Of a stretch of 64,000 nucleotides of DNA, positions 38,779-49,238 are shown piece after piece. The notes under the pieces were generated by a model that made no database searches, was not told the origin of the DNA, and saw nothing but the letters and a program-made list of their open reading frames with translations. The translations under genes were made by a program, and so were the position numbers. The stretch spans positions 1-64,000 of the forward strand of contig JACSRS010000110.1 of the NCBI GenBank assembly GCA_014879655.1. The letters are read 5' to 3'. The stretch comes from Burkholderiaceae bacterium. GTDB taxonomy: Bacteria; Pseudomonadota; Gammaproteobacteria; Burkholderiales; Burkholderiaceae_C. Every line of letters starts with the position of its first letter. Position 1 is the stretch's first letter.

Positions 38779-39204
38779 TCAGCGGGCCCGCAGGCCTTGC
38801 ACCAGCGCGCCCAGCAAGATGCCGCCCACCGCCCACAGCAGGTCGAAGTTGCCCGTGCCAAGGCCGGCAATCGCCGGGCCGGGGCAGACACCGCACAAGC
38901 CCCAGCCCACGCCAAACAGCGCCGAGCCAAGCAGCGTGTCGCGATTCCACGCGGCCCGCCGAACTTCGAATACGCCGCCCAGCAGCGGGCGACCGAGCAG
39001 GCGTGGCAGGCTCTGGTAGGCCAGCAGCGTGACAGCCACCCCGCCGCCCATCACCAGCATCAGGCCCAGATCGCTGAAGCGCAGGAAGCTCAGCACGATT
39101 TCCGGCTGCACCATGCCCGACAGCGACAGACCGAAGCCGAACAGCACGCCGGCCGCCAGCGTGGCGATTGCGCGGGGGATGTTGTCTTGACGAATGCCGC
39201 TCAT
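38779..39204 (-). CDS. YeeE/YedE transporter half (C-terminal half)
   Basis: A 141-residue membrane protein, one of two half-length YeeE/YedE subunits. Helices include ATLAAGVLFGFGLSLSGMVQ and LGSALFGVGWGLCGVCPGPA; the conserved Cys in GLCGVCPGPA is the family position where thiosulfate is passed in characterised TsuA proteins. ATG 39204 overlaps the stop of the other half (39206), so they are translated together. Sulfur-compound uptake is inferred from the family. Confidence 0.9.
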   Translation of the reverse strand: MSGIRQDNIPRAIATLAAGVLFGFGLSLSGMVQPEIVLSFLRFSDLGLMLVMGGGVAVTLLAYQSLPRLLGRPLLGGVFEVRRAAWNRDTLLGSALFGVGWGLCGVCPGPAIAGLGTGNFDLLWAVGGILLGALVQGLRAR

Positions 39205-39674
39205 CACAGCCACCTTGCAGCCAGGTTGGCGGTCAGAAACGCGGTCGCCATGAAGGTCAGCACCGCTTGCAGCGAAGGCAGGCTGAGCGAGCCCAGGCCA
39301 CAGATCCCGTGGCCCGAGGTGCAACCGTTGCCCAGCCGGGCACCGTAGCCGACCAGGAAGCCACCCGCCAGCAGTTGCCAGGCCGGTACGGCGGTGCGCT
39401 GGGGCGCTGCGTCCGCCCAGCCCAGCCACCAGACCAGTGCGCCGACGATCAGGCCCGCGGCGTAGACCAGTCGCCAATTGCGCGACTCCACCAGCGAAGG
39501 CTTCTGAAAAAACGGCCGCTGCACCACGTACGACCAGGTGCTGGAAAAGACGGAGCTCAGGCCGCCGACGCGGCCCGTCATCACGAACAGCAGCGCCACA
39601 CCGGCGCCAATCAGCAAGCCACCGATCAGGTAATGCGTCCATCCCAGCGGGAGAAGAAAAAGTGGTTGGTTCAT
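39204..39674 (-). CDS. YeeE/YedE transporter half (N-terminal half)
   Basis: A 156-residue protein of four to five helices. LIGGLLIGAGVALLFVMTGR then VGGLSSVFSSTWSYVVQRPF is the typical YeeE opening and YGARLGNGCTSGHGICGLGS carries the conserved Cys pair. Together with the coupled downstream gene it rebuilds one full-length YeeE-type channel. Split forms are common in proteobacteria. No sulfur-oxidation genes lie nearby. Confidence 0.92.
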   Translation of the reverse strand: MNQPLFLLPLGWTHYLIGGLLIGAGVALLFVMTGRVGGLSSVFSSTWSYVVQRPFFQKPSLVESRNWRLVYAAGLIVGALVWWLGWADAAPQRTAVPAWQLLAGGFLVGYGARLGNGCTSGHGICGLGSLSLPSLQAVLTFMATAFLTANLAARWL

Positions 39675-39957: not shown

Positions 39958-40935
39958 ATGAACACCGAACAACAGGAAGCCTTGCTGACCATCGTCCTGC
40001 TTGCCGCCTTTGCCGACGGCGAAAAGGCCGACGCCGAGCGCGAGGCGATCCGCCGCATCGCTGAAACCTTGAGTGGAGAGGCGGGCTCGCCCAACCTGAC
40101 GCGACTGATGCAGGATGTGCTGCTGAACCGGACCAGCCTGGCCTCGGCCTGCGCCGGGCTGACGGACACCGGCCAGCGGCAACTGGCTTATGAAATGGCG
40201 GTCAGCGTCTGTGATGCCGATGGCCAGCTCACCGACCGCGAGCGCAGCTTTCTCGCCGATCTACGCGGGCAGCTGTCGGTGAATGCCAGCCAGGCCCGCG
40301 CCTTTGAAGAACAGGCCGAAGCCATGGTAGCGGCCGTGCCGATGGCACCTGTCGCGGCGGTAAGCGCCGCCGTCGCCAGCGCACCTGCTGCTGCAGCGCC
40401 GGAAGTGACCGGTCGCGTCAATGAAGCCGAACTGGACCGCACCATCCTGAACGCGGCGCTGGTCAACGGCGCGCTGGAACTGCTGCCGCAGTCCTGGGCG
40501 TCGATGGCCATCATTCCGCTGCAGGTCCGGCTGGTCTACAACATCGGCAAGGCCTACGGCGTGACCATGGATCAGGGCTCGATCCGCGAGTTCATCGCCG
40601 CGGCGGGCGTGGGGCTGACGTCGCAATACGTGGAACAGTTCGGGCGCAAGCTGCTGGGCGGCCTGCTGGGCAAGATGGCCGGCAAGACCATCGGCAAGAT
40701 CGGCAGCGCCGGCACCGGCATGGCTTTTTCTTTTGCCTCGACTTACGCGCTGGGGCAGCTGGCGCGGCGCTACTATGCCGGCGGGCGGATCATGAACACC
40801 CGCTTGCTGCAGGAAACCTACCAGGGCCTGCTGGGCCCTGCCCGGCAGATGCAGAGCCAGTATCTGCCGCAAATGCAGGAAAAAGCCGCTTCGCTGGATG
40901 CGGCGCAGATCATGACGATGGTGCGGGGCGGCTGA
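39958..40935 (+). CDS. TerB-like and DUF697-like membrane-associated protein
   Basis: A 325-residue protein. Residues 1-115 form a TerB-like domain (LLTIVLLAAFADGEKADAER, MAVSVCDADGQLTDRERSFL) with two acidic metal-pocket motifs. An Ala/Val/Pro linker (about 115-150) leads to a C-terminal region ILNAALVNGALELLPQSWAS then MAIIPLQVRLVYNIGKAYGV, matching DUF697/YcjF-type membrane-binding sequence. Function unknown; the combination suggests a membrane-anchored stress sensor. ATG follows AAGGAGTGAAC. A second TerB-like gene is at 31355. Confidence 0.8.
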   Translation: MNTEQQEALLTIVLLAAFADGEKADAEREAIRRIAETLSGEAGSPNLTRLMQDVLLNRTSLASACAGLTDTGQRQLAYEMAVSVCDADGQLTDRERSFLADLRGQLSVNASQARAFEEQAEAMVAAVPMAPVAAVSAAVASAPAAAAPEVTGRVNEAELDRTILNAALVNGALELLPQSWASMAIIPLQVRLVYNIGKAYGVTMDQGSIREFIAAAGVGLTSQYVEQFGRKLLGGLLGKMAGKTIGKIGSAGTGMAFSFASTYALGQLARRYYAGGRIMNTRLLQETYQGLLGPARQMQSQYLPQMQEKAASLDAAQIMTMVRGG

Positions 40936-41021
40936 AAGGCCGGTTGGCAGCCGAGCTCCGCCCCCGGCTGACATCCATCACGCCGCCCTCAATCCCCCCA
41001 GCTGGCGGCCTACCGTCCCAA

Positions 41022-41060
41022 ATGAACACCCGCAACACCACCTTCGACAAAGACGCCATT
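41022..41060 (+). pseudogene. 5' stub of a 3'-5' exonuclease-like gene
   Basis: ATG at 41022 encodes MNTRNTTFDKDAI, which matches 10 of 13 residues and 33 of 39 bases of the start of the intact exonuclease at 43844 (MNTRHITPDKDAI). After that the similarity stops, close to the end of the thaumatin-like gene on the other strand. It is therefore a diverged 5' fragment placed about 2.8 kb before the intact copy, in the same orientation, flanking the thaumatin-like gene. Confidence 0.65.
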
Positions 41061-41119
41061 CCCGGAGGCTCACGAGTGTCTCGGGATGCCGGGGCGATTC
41101 GCACGAACGGACCCGCTCA

Positions 41120-43687
41120 CTACTTCAGATCCGAAAAAACCAGCCCGTAATCGGTCTTGGGTTTGCGTGAGACATCCGAACAGGTAAAAGTCGATGTCGG
41201 GTCGTCGAACGGATAGGTGTAGCAGGTCGGACAGGCCTGCTTGAGCCATTTGATCGTCGGCAGGACGTAGTTGAGCCAGTTCGCGTTGGCGGTCAGCACA
41301 TCCTGACTGGGTCGCGTCAGATTCAGCCCCGCGTTGCCCAGCGGGTTTTGCGGTGGCAGCGTGGACTGGGTCGCGCCCCACATGACGCCACCGCAGGCCA
41401 GGGCAATCGGCTGGATGGGAAATGCCGGTGTGCCGCTGGATGAGCCGTTGGCCGTGTAGGCGCTGTAGGTCTTGTTCACGCACAACTGCAGGTCGCCGAC
41501 GCTGACCGTGCCGCCCAGTCCGTTGCTCCAGGTCGTCTGGAAAGCGAACGGTGCCGAATTTGTTGCCGTGGCATTGAAGCCCCAGATCGCATCGGCCGAC
41601 ATCCACGCAACCGGTTTGCCACAGCGACGGTCGCTTGAGGCAAAGGTGGCGGTACCCGTGATGACGCTGGTCATGCTGAAACCGCAGGTGGTATCGACGG
41701 CACCGGTGCAGTCAAGATCGCGCGCGCAGACCTTGGCCGAACCGGCGCTCGGGCTGACCACCCGGAAATAACTGGACGCATCGCCCGTCACCGTCACGCC
41801 GGGGGGAAACGACGACGCGAGCGTCGGCGCAAGCGTCCAGTTGGCCGCCGGCAGGCCCAGCACGTTGCCCGCTGTCCCCGGATAGCCGCCATTCTGGTCA
41901 ATCAAGCTGCCAGCCGTGGAGCAAGCATAAGGGTCGGTCGCGGATGCTGCCACGTTGGTCGGGCCGAACTGCGCAGCGAAATTGACGCCGTTGATGATCG
42001 ACACATCGTAAAAATCGACTGCCGGATAAGCCTGAAATGTCAACTCTGCCAGTGTGTTGACGCCGGGCGAGGGTCCGGTGCCGGGACCGCATGCCAAGCC
42101 TTGGGCCTTGCCGGCGCAGGTGGCGTTTTCGCACTTGCCGGTGACCGGGTCACAGCCCGTCCGCCCATAAAAATTGCCGGACCAGATGATCCCGCTGGGC
42201 GAGAGGCTGGAGCCGGATATCTCGAAAGTGGTCGACCCTGACCCAGCAGCGAGCTGATAGCCGTTGGTCGGTGTCTTCTGGTCGTAGTAGCAGTTGAACG
42301 GGGTATTTGAAATGTCTGTGCTCGGCGCCGATCCACCCTGAATGCAGCTCGTCCCGATGGGGCACGCGGCGCGCGGGTTGGACGGCCCGCAAAGCGACCC
42401 GGCGCCCGGCTTCAGGTTGGCACTGGCTGGCCCGGGCACCACCGACGGCGTGGCGGGGCTGATATAGGCGCTGGCAGCTCCGCCGGTGATCCCCACAAAA
42501 ATGGGCTGCGACGACCGGTTGGTGAAGGTCACCGCTCGCCGTGTCGCGGCTGGTGCAACGGCCCCCAGGGTCAATGGCGCAACGACATAGGTGTGGGTGG
42601 ACTTCGAGGCGACTGTCGCATTGACCGTGACGGTCCCGCTGGTGGCCTCGCCGACGAGGCCGAATCCGCAACTCTTGACGTCGGTTGCGGCAGAACCCGA
42701 ATACCGCATCACGCAGATCTGTGAAGTGGCGGTTTTGATATTGATGTTGTCGCCCGGATCGTGGCTGTAAAAAGCCACCCCAGATCCAACGATTTGCAGG
42801 GTGACGGTCAGCGTATCACTGACCGACGGATTGCTCCAGTGGACGAACAGCGGGGCTTTCATGCCTGCCGGCACGCTGTTACCCGATTGCGTGCTGACCA
42901 CGATCTGACCATAGGTGGGGGTCGCATTCGGTATTGCGCTGATCGTGATCGGCTGATAGCCGGTGTAGTCCGCAACCACACCGCCAACGACCTGGACGAT
43001 CACGGTGGTGGTGGTCGCGGCCGGCAACGAGACCGTGGTATCGCACGCCGGCGTGACTGAAGTGACCTGGCACTGCGGTGGATTGAAGGTCACACCGGAT
43101 TGCGGGGTGCTGAAATTGACGATGGCACCGGTCGCATCCACGATTCCCGAACTGCCCGTGATCCGGGCCTGGAGTGCCATTTGATAGGGCGCGGCGCCGG
43201 TCGCGTTGAATGATTGTGAAATCGTTGAGGTGGTGACGAAAGCGCCTGAGGATGTAGCCACTGAAAGACTGCCGTAGACCACCGTGGCTGTGACGCTGGC
43301 CGCCAGCGTCGCATGCGGATAGACATCGGACCGCGCGAAAAGCGTCACAGCGCCGGTGGACTTGCCGTGAACCTTGACACTGCATTTGCTGGATGCTTCC
43401 GAAGAACTCGAAAGCGTGCAGGTGGTGGGACTGACATCGGCGATCAAGGCGTCTGACGTCGCCAGAAAGACCTGCTGGCCAGACACCCCGGAGCTGTTTT
43501 TCAGCGACAGGATCACATCACGCGTGCTGCCGGCCGATACGGCGATTGAAGATCCTTCCTCGAAATCGATCTGCCCTGCCTGCCCGCTCGGGCCGGGTGC
43601 GCCTGAATCGCCACAGCCTGCGATCATCGACGCAACGCCCAGAATCGCTCCGATGAGTCCATGCTTGGACTTGTACTTGATATTCAC
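41120..43687 (-). CDS. Lipoprotein with Ig-like repeats and C-terminal thaumatin-like domain
   Basis: An 855-residue lipoprotein. The lipobox IAGC gives lipidated Cys25 after KHGLIGAILGVASM. Residues about 40-380 are Thr/Ser/Val-rich beta-sandwich repeats (SSIAVSAGSTRDVILSLKNS, SLSVATSSGAF). From about residue 385 (AVTFTNRSSQPIFVGITGG) a thaumatin-like domain begins: FYDVSIINGVNF is the usual acidic-cleft strand, many Cys residues follow, and the C-terminus holds ACPTCYTYPFDDPTSTFTCS, very close to the thaumatin-family signature CPxAYSYAYDDxxSTFTC. This domain is most familiar from plants and fungi. Composition is slightly more AT-rich than neighbours. Flanked by exonuclease fragment and intact exonuclease. 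Confidence 0.85.
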   Translation of the reverse strand: MNIKYKSKHGLIGAILGVASMIAGCGDSGAPGPSGQAGQIDFEEGSSIAVSAGSTRDVILSLKNSSGVSGQQVFLATSDALIADVSPTTCTLSSSSEASSKCSVKVHGKSTGAVTLFARSDVYPHATLAASVTATVVYGSLSVATSSGAFVTTSTISQSFNATGAAPYQMALQARITGSSGIVDATGAIVNFSTPQSGVTFNPPQCQVTSVTPACDTTVSLPAATTTTVIVQVVGGVVADYTGYQPITISAIPNATPTYGQIVVSTQSGNSVPAGMKAPLFVHWSNPSVSDTLTVTLQIVGSGVAFYSHDPGDNINIKTATSQICVMRYSGSAATDVKSCGFGLVGEATSGTVTVNATVASKSTHTYVVAPLTLGAVAPAATRRAVTFTNRSSQPIFVGITGGAASAYISPATPSVVPGPASANLKPGAGSLCGPSNPRAACPIGTSCIQGGSAPSTDISNTPFNCYYDQKTPTNGYQLAAGSGSTTFEISGSSLSPSGIIWSGNFYGRTGCDPVTGKCENATCAGKAQGLACGPGTGPSPGVNTLAELTFQAYPAVDFYDVSIINGVNFAAQFGPTNVAASATDPYACSTAGSLIDQNGGYPGTAGNVLGLPAANWTLAPTLASSFPPGVTVTGDASSYFRVVSPSAGSAKVCARDLDCTGAVDTTCGFSMTSVITGTATFASSDRRCGKPVAWMSADAIWGFNATATNSAPFAFQTTWSNGLGGTVSVGDLQLCVNKTYSAYTANGSSSGTPAFPIQPIALACGGVMWGATQSTLPPQNPLGNAGLNLTRPSQDVLTANANWLNYVLPTIKWLKQACPTCYTYPFDDPTSTFTCSDVSRKPKTDYGLVFSDLK

Positions 43688-43843
43688 GGCTGGTGCTCCT
43701 GATAGCCAGTGTGGATAAACGCGGAATCGGCATGCGAAGCCACCTTGGTCTACAGTCTGTCACGCCCGCCGCGGTTCGGGTCTTGCGGGATACCCTGTGG
43801 ACGATACCGAAACACCTGAATCGTCGCCTTCGGCAGCCACTCC

Positions 43844-44440
43844 ATGAACACCCGCCACATCACCCCCGACAAAGATGCCATCGCCCTGCTGCCCCCGTTC
43901 GAGCGACTGGGGCTGGACCAGATCACATTCATCACCACAGAGGCCGGCGCGCGCAAGGCGCAGGCCGCGCTGGTCGCAGCGCCGGCCTGGGGTTTTGATA
44001 CCGAATCCAAACCCACCTTCAAGGTGGGCGAGGCATCGGACGGCCCGCATGTGCTGCAGCTCGCCACGCCCGATCACGCCTGGGTCTTCCACCTGCACGA
44101 TGCGGCCTGCCGCGCCGTCGCCGGGGAGTTGCTGGCCACCCCCGGCATCCCCAAGGCGGGTTTCGGCCTGGGCGACGACCGCCGGCGCATCGTGCAAAAG
44201 CTGGGCGTGGACGTGGCCGGCCTGCTGGAGCTGAACACCGTCTTTCGCGAGCGCGGCTACCGCAAGGACATGGGCGTCAAGGGTGCGGTGGCCGTGCTGT
44301 TCAACCAGCGCTTCATCAAATCCAAGAAAGCTGCCACCAGCAACTGGGCCAATGTACGCATGACCGAGGCGCAGCTGATCTACGCTGCCAACGACGCCTG
44401 GGCGGCCATCCGCGTCTACCACGCGCTGGGGCTGAACTGA
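43844..44440 (+). CDS. 3'-5' exonuclease (RNase D-like DEDD domain)
   Basis: A 198-residue DEDD exonuclease domain without HRDC. The first acidic pair is in WGFDTESKPTF (motif I, DxE), motif II falls in AGFGLGDDRRRIVQK and motif III ends with NWANVRMTEAQLIYAANDAW. Such proteins trim nucleic acid 3' ends, with specificity unknown. A diverged 5' stub of a related gene lies at 41022 on the same strand. It precedes the quinone-reductase-like gene by 54 bp. Confidence 0.88.
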   Translation: MNTRHITPDKDAIALLPPFERLGLDQITFITTEAGARKAQAALVAAPAWGFDTESKPTFKVGEASDGPHVLQLATPDHAWVFHLHDAACRAVAGELLATPGIPKAGFGLGDDRRRIVQKLGVDVAGLLELNTVFRERGYRKDMGVKGAVAVLFNQRFIKSKKAATSNWANVRMTEAQLIYAANDAWAAIRVYHALGLN

Positions 44441-47352: not shown

Positions 47353-47477
47353 AGAGATCATATTTGTTTACGCAAGTGATTCGGCACGCATGCCAGTAAC
47401 GGCGGCATCTCAGACGTGTCCGTTCTGTTCTTTCGGAATTTTTTCTGGGCCTTTCCATCGTGCAGCAAGGAGATCGT

Positions 47478-49238
47478 ATGCAAACATCACGCCCCGAGGC
47501 GCCAGAACTGGCGCTTAACCGCCGCGACTTCCTGGCTGCTACAGCGGGACTCGCCCTCGCGCCGTTCGCCGGCGATGCGGCAGCCCGCAGCGACGGCGCG
47601 CCCAACATCCTGTTCATCCTGACGGATCAGGAGCGATTCTTTCGCCCGGGCGAGTTGCCCGCAGGCTTGGAACTGCCGGCGCACGCCAAGCTGACAAAGC
47701 GCGGCACAACCTTCGTGAATCACCGCATTGCGTCCTGTGTGTGCACGCCGTCGCGCTCGGTGATCTACACCGGGCGCCACATCCAGCAGACGCGAATGTT
47801 CGACAACACCAATTTCCCGTGGATCAGCAGCATGTCTACCGAGGTGCCCACGTTGGGCCACATGCTGCGCGCCGCTGGCTACACCGCGGCCTACAAGGGC
47901 AAATGGCACCTGACCAAGGAATTCGAGACCGTCAACGAACTGGGTGCTCCGACGAAGATCTTCACCGAGGAGATGGAGGCCTACGGTTTCTCCGATTACT
48001 ACGGCGTCGGTGACATCATCGCGCACGACCGCGGTGGCTACCTGCACGACGGCATCATCGCTGCCATGGGCGTGAGCTGGCTGCGCGGCAAGGGGCGCAA
48101 GCTTGCGGCCGAAGGCAAGCCCTGGTTTCTGGCCGTCAACCTGGTGAATCCACACGACGTGATGTTCTACGACACCGACGCGCCCGGCACGCCGGTGCAG
48201 AGCAAACGGGGGCTGGTCCACATCGCGCGCGACCCGGTCGATCCGCTCTACGCCAAACAATGGCAGTTCAAGCTGCCATCCAACCACTTCCAGCCCATTG
48301 ATGCGCCCGGCCGGCCGGCGGCGCACTACGACTTCCTGCGCTCGCACGATGCGATGGTCGGCGAGATCCCCGATGAAGCGGCGCGCTGGCGCCGGCGCCA
48401 CAACTACTACCTGAACTGCATGCGCGACGTTGACCGCAACATTGGCATGGTGCTGGCCGAACTGGAGGCATCGGGACTCGCAGAGAACACCATCGTCGTG
48501 CTGACCGCCGACCACGGCGACATGGACGGCGCCCACAAGCTGCATGCCAAAGGCGCAGTTGCCTACCGCGAGCAGAACAACGTGCCTCTGGTGATCGTGC
48601 ACCCCTCTTTCGCCGGTGGCAAGCAGTGCCGCGCGGTGACCTCGCACGTCGACCTGGCGCCGACGCTGCTGTCGTTGACCGGCATCGGTGAGCAGCGCGT
48701 GAAAGCCATCACGAAGGATCTGCCTGGCAAGAACCTGGCCCCGCTGCTGGCAGCGCCCGACCGCGCCAACGAGACGGCGGTGCGCGACGGCGCACTCTTT
48801 TGCTACAACATGCTGGCTTATCTGGATGGCGACTTCCTCTTCAAGGCGGTCGAGTACCTGCACCAGGGTGGCAAACCGGCCGATATCAAGGCAGCCGGCA
48901 TCGTACCCAACCTGCGCAAGCGTGGCGCCGTGCGATCGGTGTACGACGGCCGCTACGTCTTCGCCCGCTACTTCTCGCCGAAGGAACACAACCGGCCGAC
49001 GACGATGGAAGAGTTGACGCTCCTGAATGATCTGGAGCTCTACGACACCCTCGCCGATCCGCTGGAGATGAACAATCTGGCGATGGACCCCCGACGCCGC
49101 GGCGATCTGGTGCTGGCGATGAATGACAAGCTCAACCGGCTGATCGACACCGAGGTCGGTGAGGACCGCGGTCAGATGTTGCCGGGCGGCATCGAAGCAG
49201 GCTGGGAAGTCACCCGCGAGACGATGGCCGGCGCCTGA
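47478..49238 (+). CDS. Tat-exported sulfatase
   Basis: A 586-residue type I sulfatase. The leader has twin Arg (ALNRRDFLAATAGLALAPFA), consistent with Tat export. APNILFILTDQERF provides the first metal-binding Asp. The formylglycine site is C89-T-P-S-R93 within ASCVCTPSRSVIYTGRH, and KGKWHL and TADHGDMDGAHKL are later active-site elements. It hydrolyses a sulfate ester; no maturation enzyme or sulfate transporter is nearby. RBS AAGGAG precedes ATG 47478. Probably controlled by the divergent TetR protein. Confidence 0.93.
   Translation: MQTSRPEAPELALNRRDFLAATAGLALAPFAGDAAARSDGAPNILFILTDQERFFRPGELPAGLELPAHAKLTKRGTTFVNHRIASCVCTPSRSVIYTGRHIQQTRMFDNTNFPWISSMSTEVPTLGHMLRAAGYTAAYKGKWHLTKEFETVNELGAPTKIFTEEMEAYGFSDYYGVGDIIAHDRGGYLHDGIIAAMGVSWLRGKGRKLAAEGKPWFLAVNLVNPHDVMFYDTDAPGTPVQSKRGLVHIARDPVDPLYAKQWQFKLPSNHFQPIDAPGRPAAHYDFLRSHDAMVGEIPDEAARWRRRHNYYLNCMRDVDRNIGMVLAELEASGLAENTIVVLTADHGDMDGAHKLHAKGAVAYREQNNVPLVIVHPSFAGGKQCRAVTSHVDLAPTLLSLTGIGEQRVKAITKDLPGKNLAPLLAAPDRANETAVRDGALFCYNMLAYLDGDFLFKAVEYLHQGGKPADIKAAGIVPNLRKRGAVRSVYDGRYVFARYFSPKEHNRPTTMEELTLLNDLELYDTLADPLEMNNLAMDPRRRGDLVLAMNDKLNRLIDTEVGEDRGQMLPGGIEAGWEVTRETMAGA

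What the first reader, a model, noticed from the sequence alone, without database searches (positions are those of the whole stretch)
41120..43687. Bacterial lipoprotein with a thaumatin-like domain
The C-terminal ACPTCYTYPFDDPTSTFTCS closely follows the thaumatin signature, and the domain lies behind Ig-like repeats on a lipid anchor. Thaumatin-like proteins are plant and fungal glucan-binding or antifungal proteins; a lipid-anchored form in a soil or water betaproteobacterium suggests a role at the surface against or with fungi or polysaccharide. Function is inferred.
Basis: partly seen in the sequence, partly recalled or inferred. Interest (0 to 1): 0.7.

Follow-up and report, generated by a model that had tools for sequence, protein, structure and literature searches.

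The report
Bacterial surface protein with thaumatin domain
A bacterium carries a lipid-anchored protein that holds out, on a stalk of immunoglobulin-like domains, an enlarged version of the plant antifungal thaumatin domain; it belongs to a little-known bacterial family that also resembles a Legionella injected protein, and it probably grips sugar polymers such as glucans.

Summary
The minus-strand gene 41120-43687 encodes an 855-aa protein: lipobox IAGC (C25), about three Ig-like domains (35-377) and a thaumatin-family domain (385-855; PF00314 64.5 bits, cut-off 27.4). It is not a classical thaumatin-like protein: the domain has 471 residues instead of about 200, with two cysteine-bearing inserts; the disulfide joining the ends (C9-C204) is absent; the acidic motif reads R-E-D-N-D. 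Eight relatives (33-51% identity; Burkholderiales, other Proteobacteria, Myxococcota) share the architecture. In 18 aligned proteins the two end cysteines are both present (6) or both absent (12), which fits the thaumatin disulfide plan. AlphaFold failed on the domain, so the fold rests on sequence. The NCBIfam LegT profile (Legionella injected effector) matches 18 of 18, far below its cut-off: LegT looks like one branch of this bacterial kind. The gene is rare (1 of 250 genomes searched in its family), has no conserved neighbour and the lowest GC3 of ten local genes, so it was probably acquired. Most likely it is an outer-membrane adhesin for beta-glucan-like polysaccharide; ligand, surface exposure and any antifungal role are untested. 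New variant of a known kind.

The parts
41120..43687 (-). whole gene, 855-aa lipoprotein (GTG start, stop at 41120-41122)
   Evidence: relatives over most of the length in 8 loci
43696..43700 (-). AGGAG, ribosome-binding-site-like, 8 nt before the GTG
   Evidence: read from the sequence
43613..43687 (-). signal peptide and lipobox IAGC, Cys25, next residue Gly
   Evidence: C25 invariant in the 9 rows of A2; lipobox pattern
42557..43585 (-). about three Ig-like domains, residues about 35-134, 136-254, 255-377, with cysteines 90/102, 206/215, 325/340 (one possible pair each)
   Evidence: model pLDDT mostly 70-90 there; VIA-align Z 12.6 to an S-layer SbsC domain, Z 10.5 to a fibrillar-adhesin domain; Cys positions
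41123..42535 (-). extended thaumatin-family domain, residues 385-855
   Evidence: PF00314, PDB TLP sequences with profile A1
42260..42490 (-). insert I, about residues 400-476, Cys 433, 442, 448, 466 (invariant in the 9 rows of A1)
   Evidence: alignment A1; in 3zs3 the same interval is about 70 residues shorter (where the first stretch itself scores only 0.1 bit)
41903..42187 (-). thaumatin core stretch 1, residues 501-595 (R509, E548, D561, N566; Cys 512, 519, 524, 533, 589)
41282..41902 (-). insert II, about residues 596-802, where thaumatin has its short domain II
   Evidence: in the 5 distinct PDB alignments printed, 42-62 residues lie between the two matched stretches, about 200-220 in the window protein
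41123..41281 (-). C-terminal thaumatin segment, residues 803-855, with signature ACPTCYTYPFDDPTSTFTC (41180-41236) and D828

Best explanation
The gene encodes an outer-membrane lipoprotein that holds an enlarged thaumatin-family domain away from the cell on a stalk of about three Ig-like domains. Shown by sequence: lipobox, architecture, family membership, conserved core residues, two inserts, loss of the end-joining cysteine pair, presence in distantly related bacteria. Inferred: the protein is lipidated at C25, goes to the outer membrane (the residue after Cys is Gly, not Asp; rule recalled), is exposed on the surface (perhaps through the type II secretion system, whose secretin gene the genome has), and the cleft of the thaumatin core, enlarged by the inserts, binds beta-1,3-glucan-like polysaccharide, so that the protein works as an adhesin or capture protein on fungal, algal, oomycete or protist walls.
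For: PF00314 in 9 of 9 family members at E up to 0.001. With profile A1 the first 13 PDB sequences are thaumatin-like proteins (E 1.2e-18 to 8.1e-9); the other 18 listed are sodium channels at E 0.1 or worse. R in 17 of 18, E, D1 and D3 in 18 of 18. Lipobox-like motif in 13 of the 15 proteins whose N-terminus is held. Ig-like stalk. GspD in the genome, 604.8 bits, cut-off 351.35. Fungal SUN domains, which contain a thaumatin-like fold and in ScSun4 lack REDDD, bind beta-1,3-glucan (PMC13251364, abstract and passages; its reference list also names a 1998 paper on TLPs binding beta-1,3-glucans, which I did not see).
Against: No ligand or activity is shown. The fourth acidic residue is N, G or Q in 17 of 18, so the cleft chemistry differs. 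AlphaFold gave pLDDT 33.0 on the domain and mostly under 50 for it in the full model: the fold is not confirmed. None of the nine neighbours scanned has a glucan-specific domain; the nearest glycan-related one is a sulfatase at 47460-49238. Surface exposure was not tested.
Confidence: 0.42

Rival explanations
1. It is a factor aimed at eukaryotic cells such as amoebae or other protists, of the same working kind as Legionella LegT, here tethered on the surface or delivered by contact.
For: NCBIfam LegT profile matches 435-851 at E 1.1e-30 and 18 of 18 family proteins scanned (L030 only over its last 86 residues); in Peristeroidobacter soli the frame begins 90 bp after a type III secretin gene (SctC, with SctT and SctU, all above cut-off) and is followed by two-partner-secretion genes on the same strand.
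Against: LegT score 106.7 against a cut-off of 1200; the window protein has a lipobox; the type III context was recognised at 1 of 8 related loci (not every neighbour of the other 7 was scanned); the two secretins found in the window's genome score as GspD and PilQ, neither over the SctC cut-off. Dot/Icm was not looked for.
Confidence: 0.2
2. It is an active endo-beta-1,3-glucanase displayed on the surface for feeding on glucans.
For: Fungal TLPs are said to have beta-1,3-glucanase activity (PMC13148976, passage); bacterial GH64 glucanases belong to a GH64-TLP superfamily (PMC13251364, passage); E548 and D561 are invariant in 18 of 18.
Against: No glycoside-hydrolase model hit in Pfam up to E 1; the fourth acid is lost in 17 of 18.
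Confidence: 0.15
3. It is an enzyme inhibitor or envelope scaffold, not a sugar binder.
For: A small wheat TLP has a reported xylanase-inhibitor function (PMC3048497, passage); the many cysteines suggest a stable scaffold.
Against: Four polar core residues are nearly invariant, more than a mere scaffold would need.
Confidence: 0.13
4. The likeness to thaumatin is partial and the domain has another overall fold.
For: AlphaFold gave no confident fold; about 280 of 471 residues lie in the inserts; L026 breaks the cysteine concordance for 512/519 and 524/533.
Against: 11 of 13 thaumatin-like PDB sequences match in two stretches of the window protein, in the same order in the alignments printed; end cysteines are present or absent together in 18 of 18, and 519, 589 and 836 are lost together in two.
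Confidence: 0.05

Closest known systems
Thaumatin family PF00314 / PR-5 thaumatin-like proteins (osmotin, zeamatin, PR-5d)
   Same: core stretch with GRTGC..C..C..C, TLAE, DFYD, and the C-terminal C..CYTYPFDDPTSTFTC; R, E, D, D of REDDD; seven cysteines that align with family cysteines
   Different: 471-aa domain instead of about 200; two inserts with new cysteines; no C9-C204 pair; N for the fourth acid; extra C822; lipid anchor and Ig stalk
LegT (NCBIfam NF045527), Dot/Icm effector of Legionella with a thaumatin domain (lpg1328)
   Same: one continuous profile match, residues 435-851 to positions 375-759, inserts included
   Different: 106.7 bits against a cut-off of 1200; lipobox. The LegT sequence itself was not fetched, and Dot/Icm was not looked for in the window's genome
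Fungal SUN domains (sushi plus thaumatin-like fold), beta-1,3-glucan binding
   Same: thaumatin-like module joined with extra structure to form a binding surface; REDDD not needed in ScSun4 (PMC13251364, passages)
   Different: different partner domain; no SUN chain among the hits, not tested otherwise
GH64 beta-1,3-glucanases (GH64-TLP superfamily)
   Same: shared superfamily according to PMC13251364 (passage)
   Different: no GH64 model matched the window protein in Pfam up to E 1
Ig-stalked bacterial surface proteins (SbsC S-layer protein, Gram-negative fibrillar adhesins)
   Same: N-terminal Ig-like domains, VIA Z 12.6 and 10.5
   Different: the tip domain is thaumatin-like

Membership tests
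Thaumatin family PF00314 | whole-protein score over Pfam's gathering cut-off | tested here: met
   64.5 bits against 27.4; 9 of 9 rows of A2 match at E up to 0.001
Classical PR-5 thaumatin-like protein | domain of about 200 residues | tested here: not met
   471 residues; the 13 PDB chains matched are 198-240 long
Classical PR-5 thaumatin-like protein | end-joining disulfide C9-C204 (numbering recalled) | tested here: not met
   Ser392 and Ser852 in their place; both cysteines absent in 12 and both present in 6 of 18 aligned proteins
Classical PR-5 thaumatin-like protein | full REDDD motif | tested here: not met
   R509 E548 D561 N566 D828; fourth position D in 1 of 18. Which residues make the motif is recalled and placed through the zeamatin alignment
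Classical PR-5 thaumatin-like protein | other family disulfides | tested here: inconclusive
   Cys 512, 519, 524, 533, 589, 819, 836 align with TLP cysteines; 519, 589 and 836 lost together in L029 and L030, but L026 lacks 512 and 533 while keeping 519 and 524; bonding not seen, domain II not alignable
Thaumatin fold | three-dimensional fold with acidic cleft | tested here: inconclusive
   AlphaFold pLDDT 33.0 on the domain
LegT (NF045527, equivalog) | score over the curated cut-off of 1200 | tested here: not met
   106.7 bits
Bacterial lipoprotein | signal peptide with lipobox cysteine | tested here: met
   IAGC, C25 invariant in 9 of 9 rows; no signal-peptide program was run; lipidation itself not testable
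GH64 glucanase | match to a GH64 family model | tested here: inconclusive
   only PF00314 and a below-cut-off DC_STAMP in Pfam up to E 1

The most novel reading that the evidence does not exclude
There is an undescribed bacterial branch of the thaumatin superfamily, defined by two cysteine-bearing inserts and carried mostly on Ig-stalked outer-membrane lipoproteins that grip polysaccharides of fungi or protists. The thaumatin domain of the Legionella effector LegT, listed as a eukaryotic motif, was recruited from this bacterial branch rather than taken from a eukaryotic host.
Probability: 0.35. Interest if true: 0.68.

Novelty: new variant of a known kind. Interest (0 to 1): 0.5.

Why it matters
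The two thaumatin papers looked at here describe thaumatin-like proteins of plants, fungi and animals (passages of PMC3048497; abstract start and passages of PMC13148976), and a thaumatin domain in Legionella has been listed as a eukaryotic motif (PMC4256840). A family of lipoproteins in other bacteria with the same enlarged domain gives that effector a possible bacterial ancestry and is a new candidate class of bacterial glucan-binding surface protein. It can be tested with one purified domain and one deletion mutant.

Tried and rejected
AlphaFold on the thaumatin domain (9 rows, pLDDT 33.0) and on the whole protein (pLDDT 54.2, confident only for the Ig part): the domain was not used for any fold claim. 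Foldseek and VIA-align on the full model inform only the N-terminal part; Foldseek TM-scores by query length are 0.15 or less in the 50 rows shown. No thaumatin chain appears in the rows shown, which is not evidence against the fold.

Synteny: ORFs of 100 aa or more of the 64-kb window against those of 12 loci (L013-L020, L003, L006, L007, L008) at E 1e-6: apart from the thaumatin genes and frames overlapping them, only L019/L020 share a neighbour with each other and L015/L016 a weak one (24.9% identity; L015's protein is an MFS transporter). No conserved partner gene within the flanks held.

Phage and plasmid records: no phage match; one plasmid match, a Legionella adelaidensis record at 25.7% identity, which was not opened. 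Phylum-wide search with A1: 3 of 398 genomes counting the own one; the other two are short matches with a stop codon inside and are discounted.

Contamination of the assembly as the source: thought unlikely, because the flanking exonuclease and YeeE genes are 76% and 79% identical to those of another genome of the same family, where they also lie close together. In the second relative looked at (L043) only the exonuclease was found in the 12-kb stretch.

A promoter scan of 40850-43950 found none (0 found, 0.5 expected); terminator-like sites are at chance level (3 found, 2.3 expected).

Full report
What is there. The minus strand of 41120-43687 holds an 855-aa open frame starting with GTG, with AGGAG 8 nt upstream. 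The protein begins with a hydrophobic signal peptide and lipobox IAGC (C25), goes on with about 340 residues of beta structure and ends in a 471-residue domain (385-855). Pfam finds one family above cut-off, Thaumatin PF00314 (E 1.4e-17, 64.5 bits, cut-off 27.4). Against the PDB, phmmer lists 13 distinct sequences up to E 10, all thaumatin-like proteins, from plants and one rust fungus (organisms partly recalled from the names). A profile of nine family members (A1) ranks the same 13 first, at E 1.2e-18 to 8.1e-9; the other 18 listed up to E 1 are sodium channels at E 0.1 or worse.

The domain is not a standard thaumatin. The 13 PDB chains are 198-240 residues long. 11 of the 13 match in two stretches. 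In the five distinct alignments printed, 42-62 residues lie between the stretches, while the window protein has about 220 there (202-214 profile positions). A further insert of about 70 residues with four cysteines (433, 442, 448, 466) lies between the first strand and about residue 477 (the comparison rests on 3zs3, whose first stretch scores only 0.1 bit). The search of the own genome with PF00314 gives the same two stretches (41903-42187 and 41168-41251).

Relatives. A scan of the GTDB species genomes (84,980) with P0001, a mode that finds close relatives only, gave 15 pattern matches of which 8 encode a relative at 33-51% identity over most of the query: two Burkholderiales MAGs, a Neisseriales MAG, an Anaeromyxobacter MAG (Myxococcota), Peristeroidobacter soli, a Halothiobacillus MAG and two other proteobacterial MAGs. 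In the nine-row full-length alignment C25 is invariant (9 of 9), and the residue after it is never Asp, which by the E. coli rule (recalled) points to the outer membrane. Of 18 family proteins, 13 have a lipobox-like motif, 2 (L003, L007) have none, and in 3 (L027, L029, L030) the frame is cut by the end of the locus (the pattern was permissive).

Cysteines and the acidic cleft (18 proteins: window, L013-L020, L024-L030, L003, L007). Left out before the count: L022 and L023, the same proteins as L015 and L016, L006 (159-aa frame), L008 (below the Pfam cut-off), and the five loci of family f43. The positions of thaumatin C9 and C204 (numbering recalled) are both Cys in 6 and both non-Cys in 12 proteins, never one alone. 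On the tree the 12 are set apart by one split (support 99/97), so this is one joint loss or gain, not many independent ones. Positions 519, 589 and 836 are non-Cys together in the two related paralogs L029 and L030, which also lack 512; this fits disulfides C56-C66 and C121-C193. Against a simple picture, L026 lacks 512 and 533 but keeps 519 and 524, in a region with a deletion. Of REDDD (the motif is described in PMC3048497, passages; placed here through zeamatin) R is kept in 17 of 18, E, the first D and the last D in 18 of 18; the fourth is N in 10, G in 6, Q in 1 and D in 1 (L007). So the polar core is strongly held but the acidic cleft is altered.

Structure. AlphaFold with nine rows failed on the domain (pLDDT 33.0). 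The full-length model (pLDDT 54.2) is confident only for much of residues 37-377, which VIA-align matches to Ig-like domains: S-layer protein SbsC (Z 12.6, 90 residues, 2.3 A for 37-134), a domain of a Gram-negative fibrillar adhesin (Z 10.5 for 255-377) and others. Each presumed Ig domain has two cysteines (90/102, 206/215, 325/340). The thaumatin fold is thus supported by sequence and by concordant cysteines, not by a model.

Link to LegT. NCBIfam's only hit up to E 1 is LegT, a Dot/Icm effector, E 1.1e-30 over 435-851, profile 375-759, but 106.7 bits against a cut-off of 1200: not a LegT. The match runs through insert II and part of insert I, which the plain thaumatin model does not cover (two stretches, 64.5 bits; scores of different models are not strictly comparable). 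The profile matches 9 of 9 rows of A2 and 9 of 9 further proteins; L007 matches nearly the whole profile (2-765 of 776, 265.9 bits), L030 only over its last 86 residues (36.1 bits). Thaumatin was put among eukaryotic motifs of Legionella by the rule that a motif occurs in at least 85% of cases in eukaryotes; lpg1328 is in that table, but not in the table of genes whose trees showed transfer from eukaryotes (PMC4256840, section 17 part 1 read). legT is labelled thaumatin domain in PMC2824747 (one passage). The bacterial family described here offers another source for that domain. No eukaryotic sequence was put in a tree, and ascomycete TLPs have insertions of their own (PMC3048497), so a eukaryotic origin is not excluded.

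Distribution and acquisition. PF00314 was found in 1 of 250 genomes of the window's family, the own one, and in 7 of 369 of the class, own included, 6 of them over the cut-off. A1 matched 7 of 399 genomes of the order: the own one and six of one genus, whose loci have 33-40% GC and of which two genomes carry two and three copies. The gene's GC3 is 0.749, the lowest of ten genes measured (others 0.810-0.892). In relative G002 the flanking YeeE-like and exonuclease genes (79% and 76% identity) are about 1.6 kb apart with one Na/H-exchanger frame between, while the window has a TerB-domain gene and the thaumatin gene there. The window protein groups with L013 and the myxobacterial L014 (99/97), and L014 has an integrase gene next to it. 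Together these suggest horizontal acquisition into a variable spot of a native chromosome stretch; this is inference.

Context for function. Nine neighbours scanned gave ordinary domains, among them a sulfatase. The two secretins found in the genome (96% complete) score as GspD (604.8 bits, cut-off 351.35) and PilQ (512.3, cut-off 284.35), neither over the cut-off of the type III secretin. In P. soli the homologous frame begins 90 bp after sctC, with sctT and sctU upstream and a two-partner-secretion pair downstream on the same strand; this was recognised at one of eight loci, and not all neighbours of the others were scanned.

Most likely mechanism. An outer-membrane lipoprotein with an Ig stalk presents the enlarged thaumatin domain to bind beta-glucan-like polysaccharide. 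Fungal SUN domains, which contain a thaumatin-like fold and in ScSun4 lack REDDD, bind beta-1,3-glucans (PMC13251364, abstract and passages), which makes binding plausible despite the changed fourth acid. Anatomy is shown; anchoring, surface exposure, ligand and role are inferred.

Literature. Ten searches of the held open-access library were made; several listings were capped (for example 15 of 89, 25 of 41, 8 of 150). In the titles and abstract starts listed I saw no paper on bacterial thaumatin-domain lipoproteins; the only bacterial thaumatin proteins met in the passages read are those of Legionella, besides GH64 enzymes of the wider superfamily (PMC13251364). Most subscription papers are not held, so absence from print is not shown.

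Noticed in passing
L018:639-12336: In Peristeroidobacter soli the homologous gene sits between type III secretion genes sctT, sctU, sctC and a two-partner-secretion pair (ShlB-type transporter and filamentous haemagglutinin-like protein), all on one strand.
   Followed up: partly
L023, L029, L030 (one genome, G976) and L026, L028 (G809): A low-GC genus of the same order has species with two or three diverged paralogs of the thaumatin protein, some with long N-terminal parts of repeated beta-rich sequence.
   Followed up: partly
38779-39674: The YeeE/YedE-type sulphur transporter region appears as two overlapping minus-strand frames here, while relative G002 has one 344-aa frame (L042:6615-7649).
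   Followed up: no
39958-40935: TerB-domain gene next to the thaumatin gene; not found in the 12-kb stretches of two relatives searched (L042, L043).
   Followed up: partly
47460-49238: Sulfatase-family gene with a match to the N-sulphoglucosamine sulphohydrolase C-terminal model just over its cut-off, 4 kb from the thaumatin gene.
   Followed up: no
L014:7518-8585: Phage-type integrase gene just downstream of the thaumatin homologue in an Anaeromyxobacter MAG.
   Followed up: no
L008:649-2508: A 619-aa protein in another genome of the class with a below-cut-off thaumatin match (19.7 bits).
   Followed up: no
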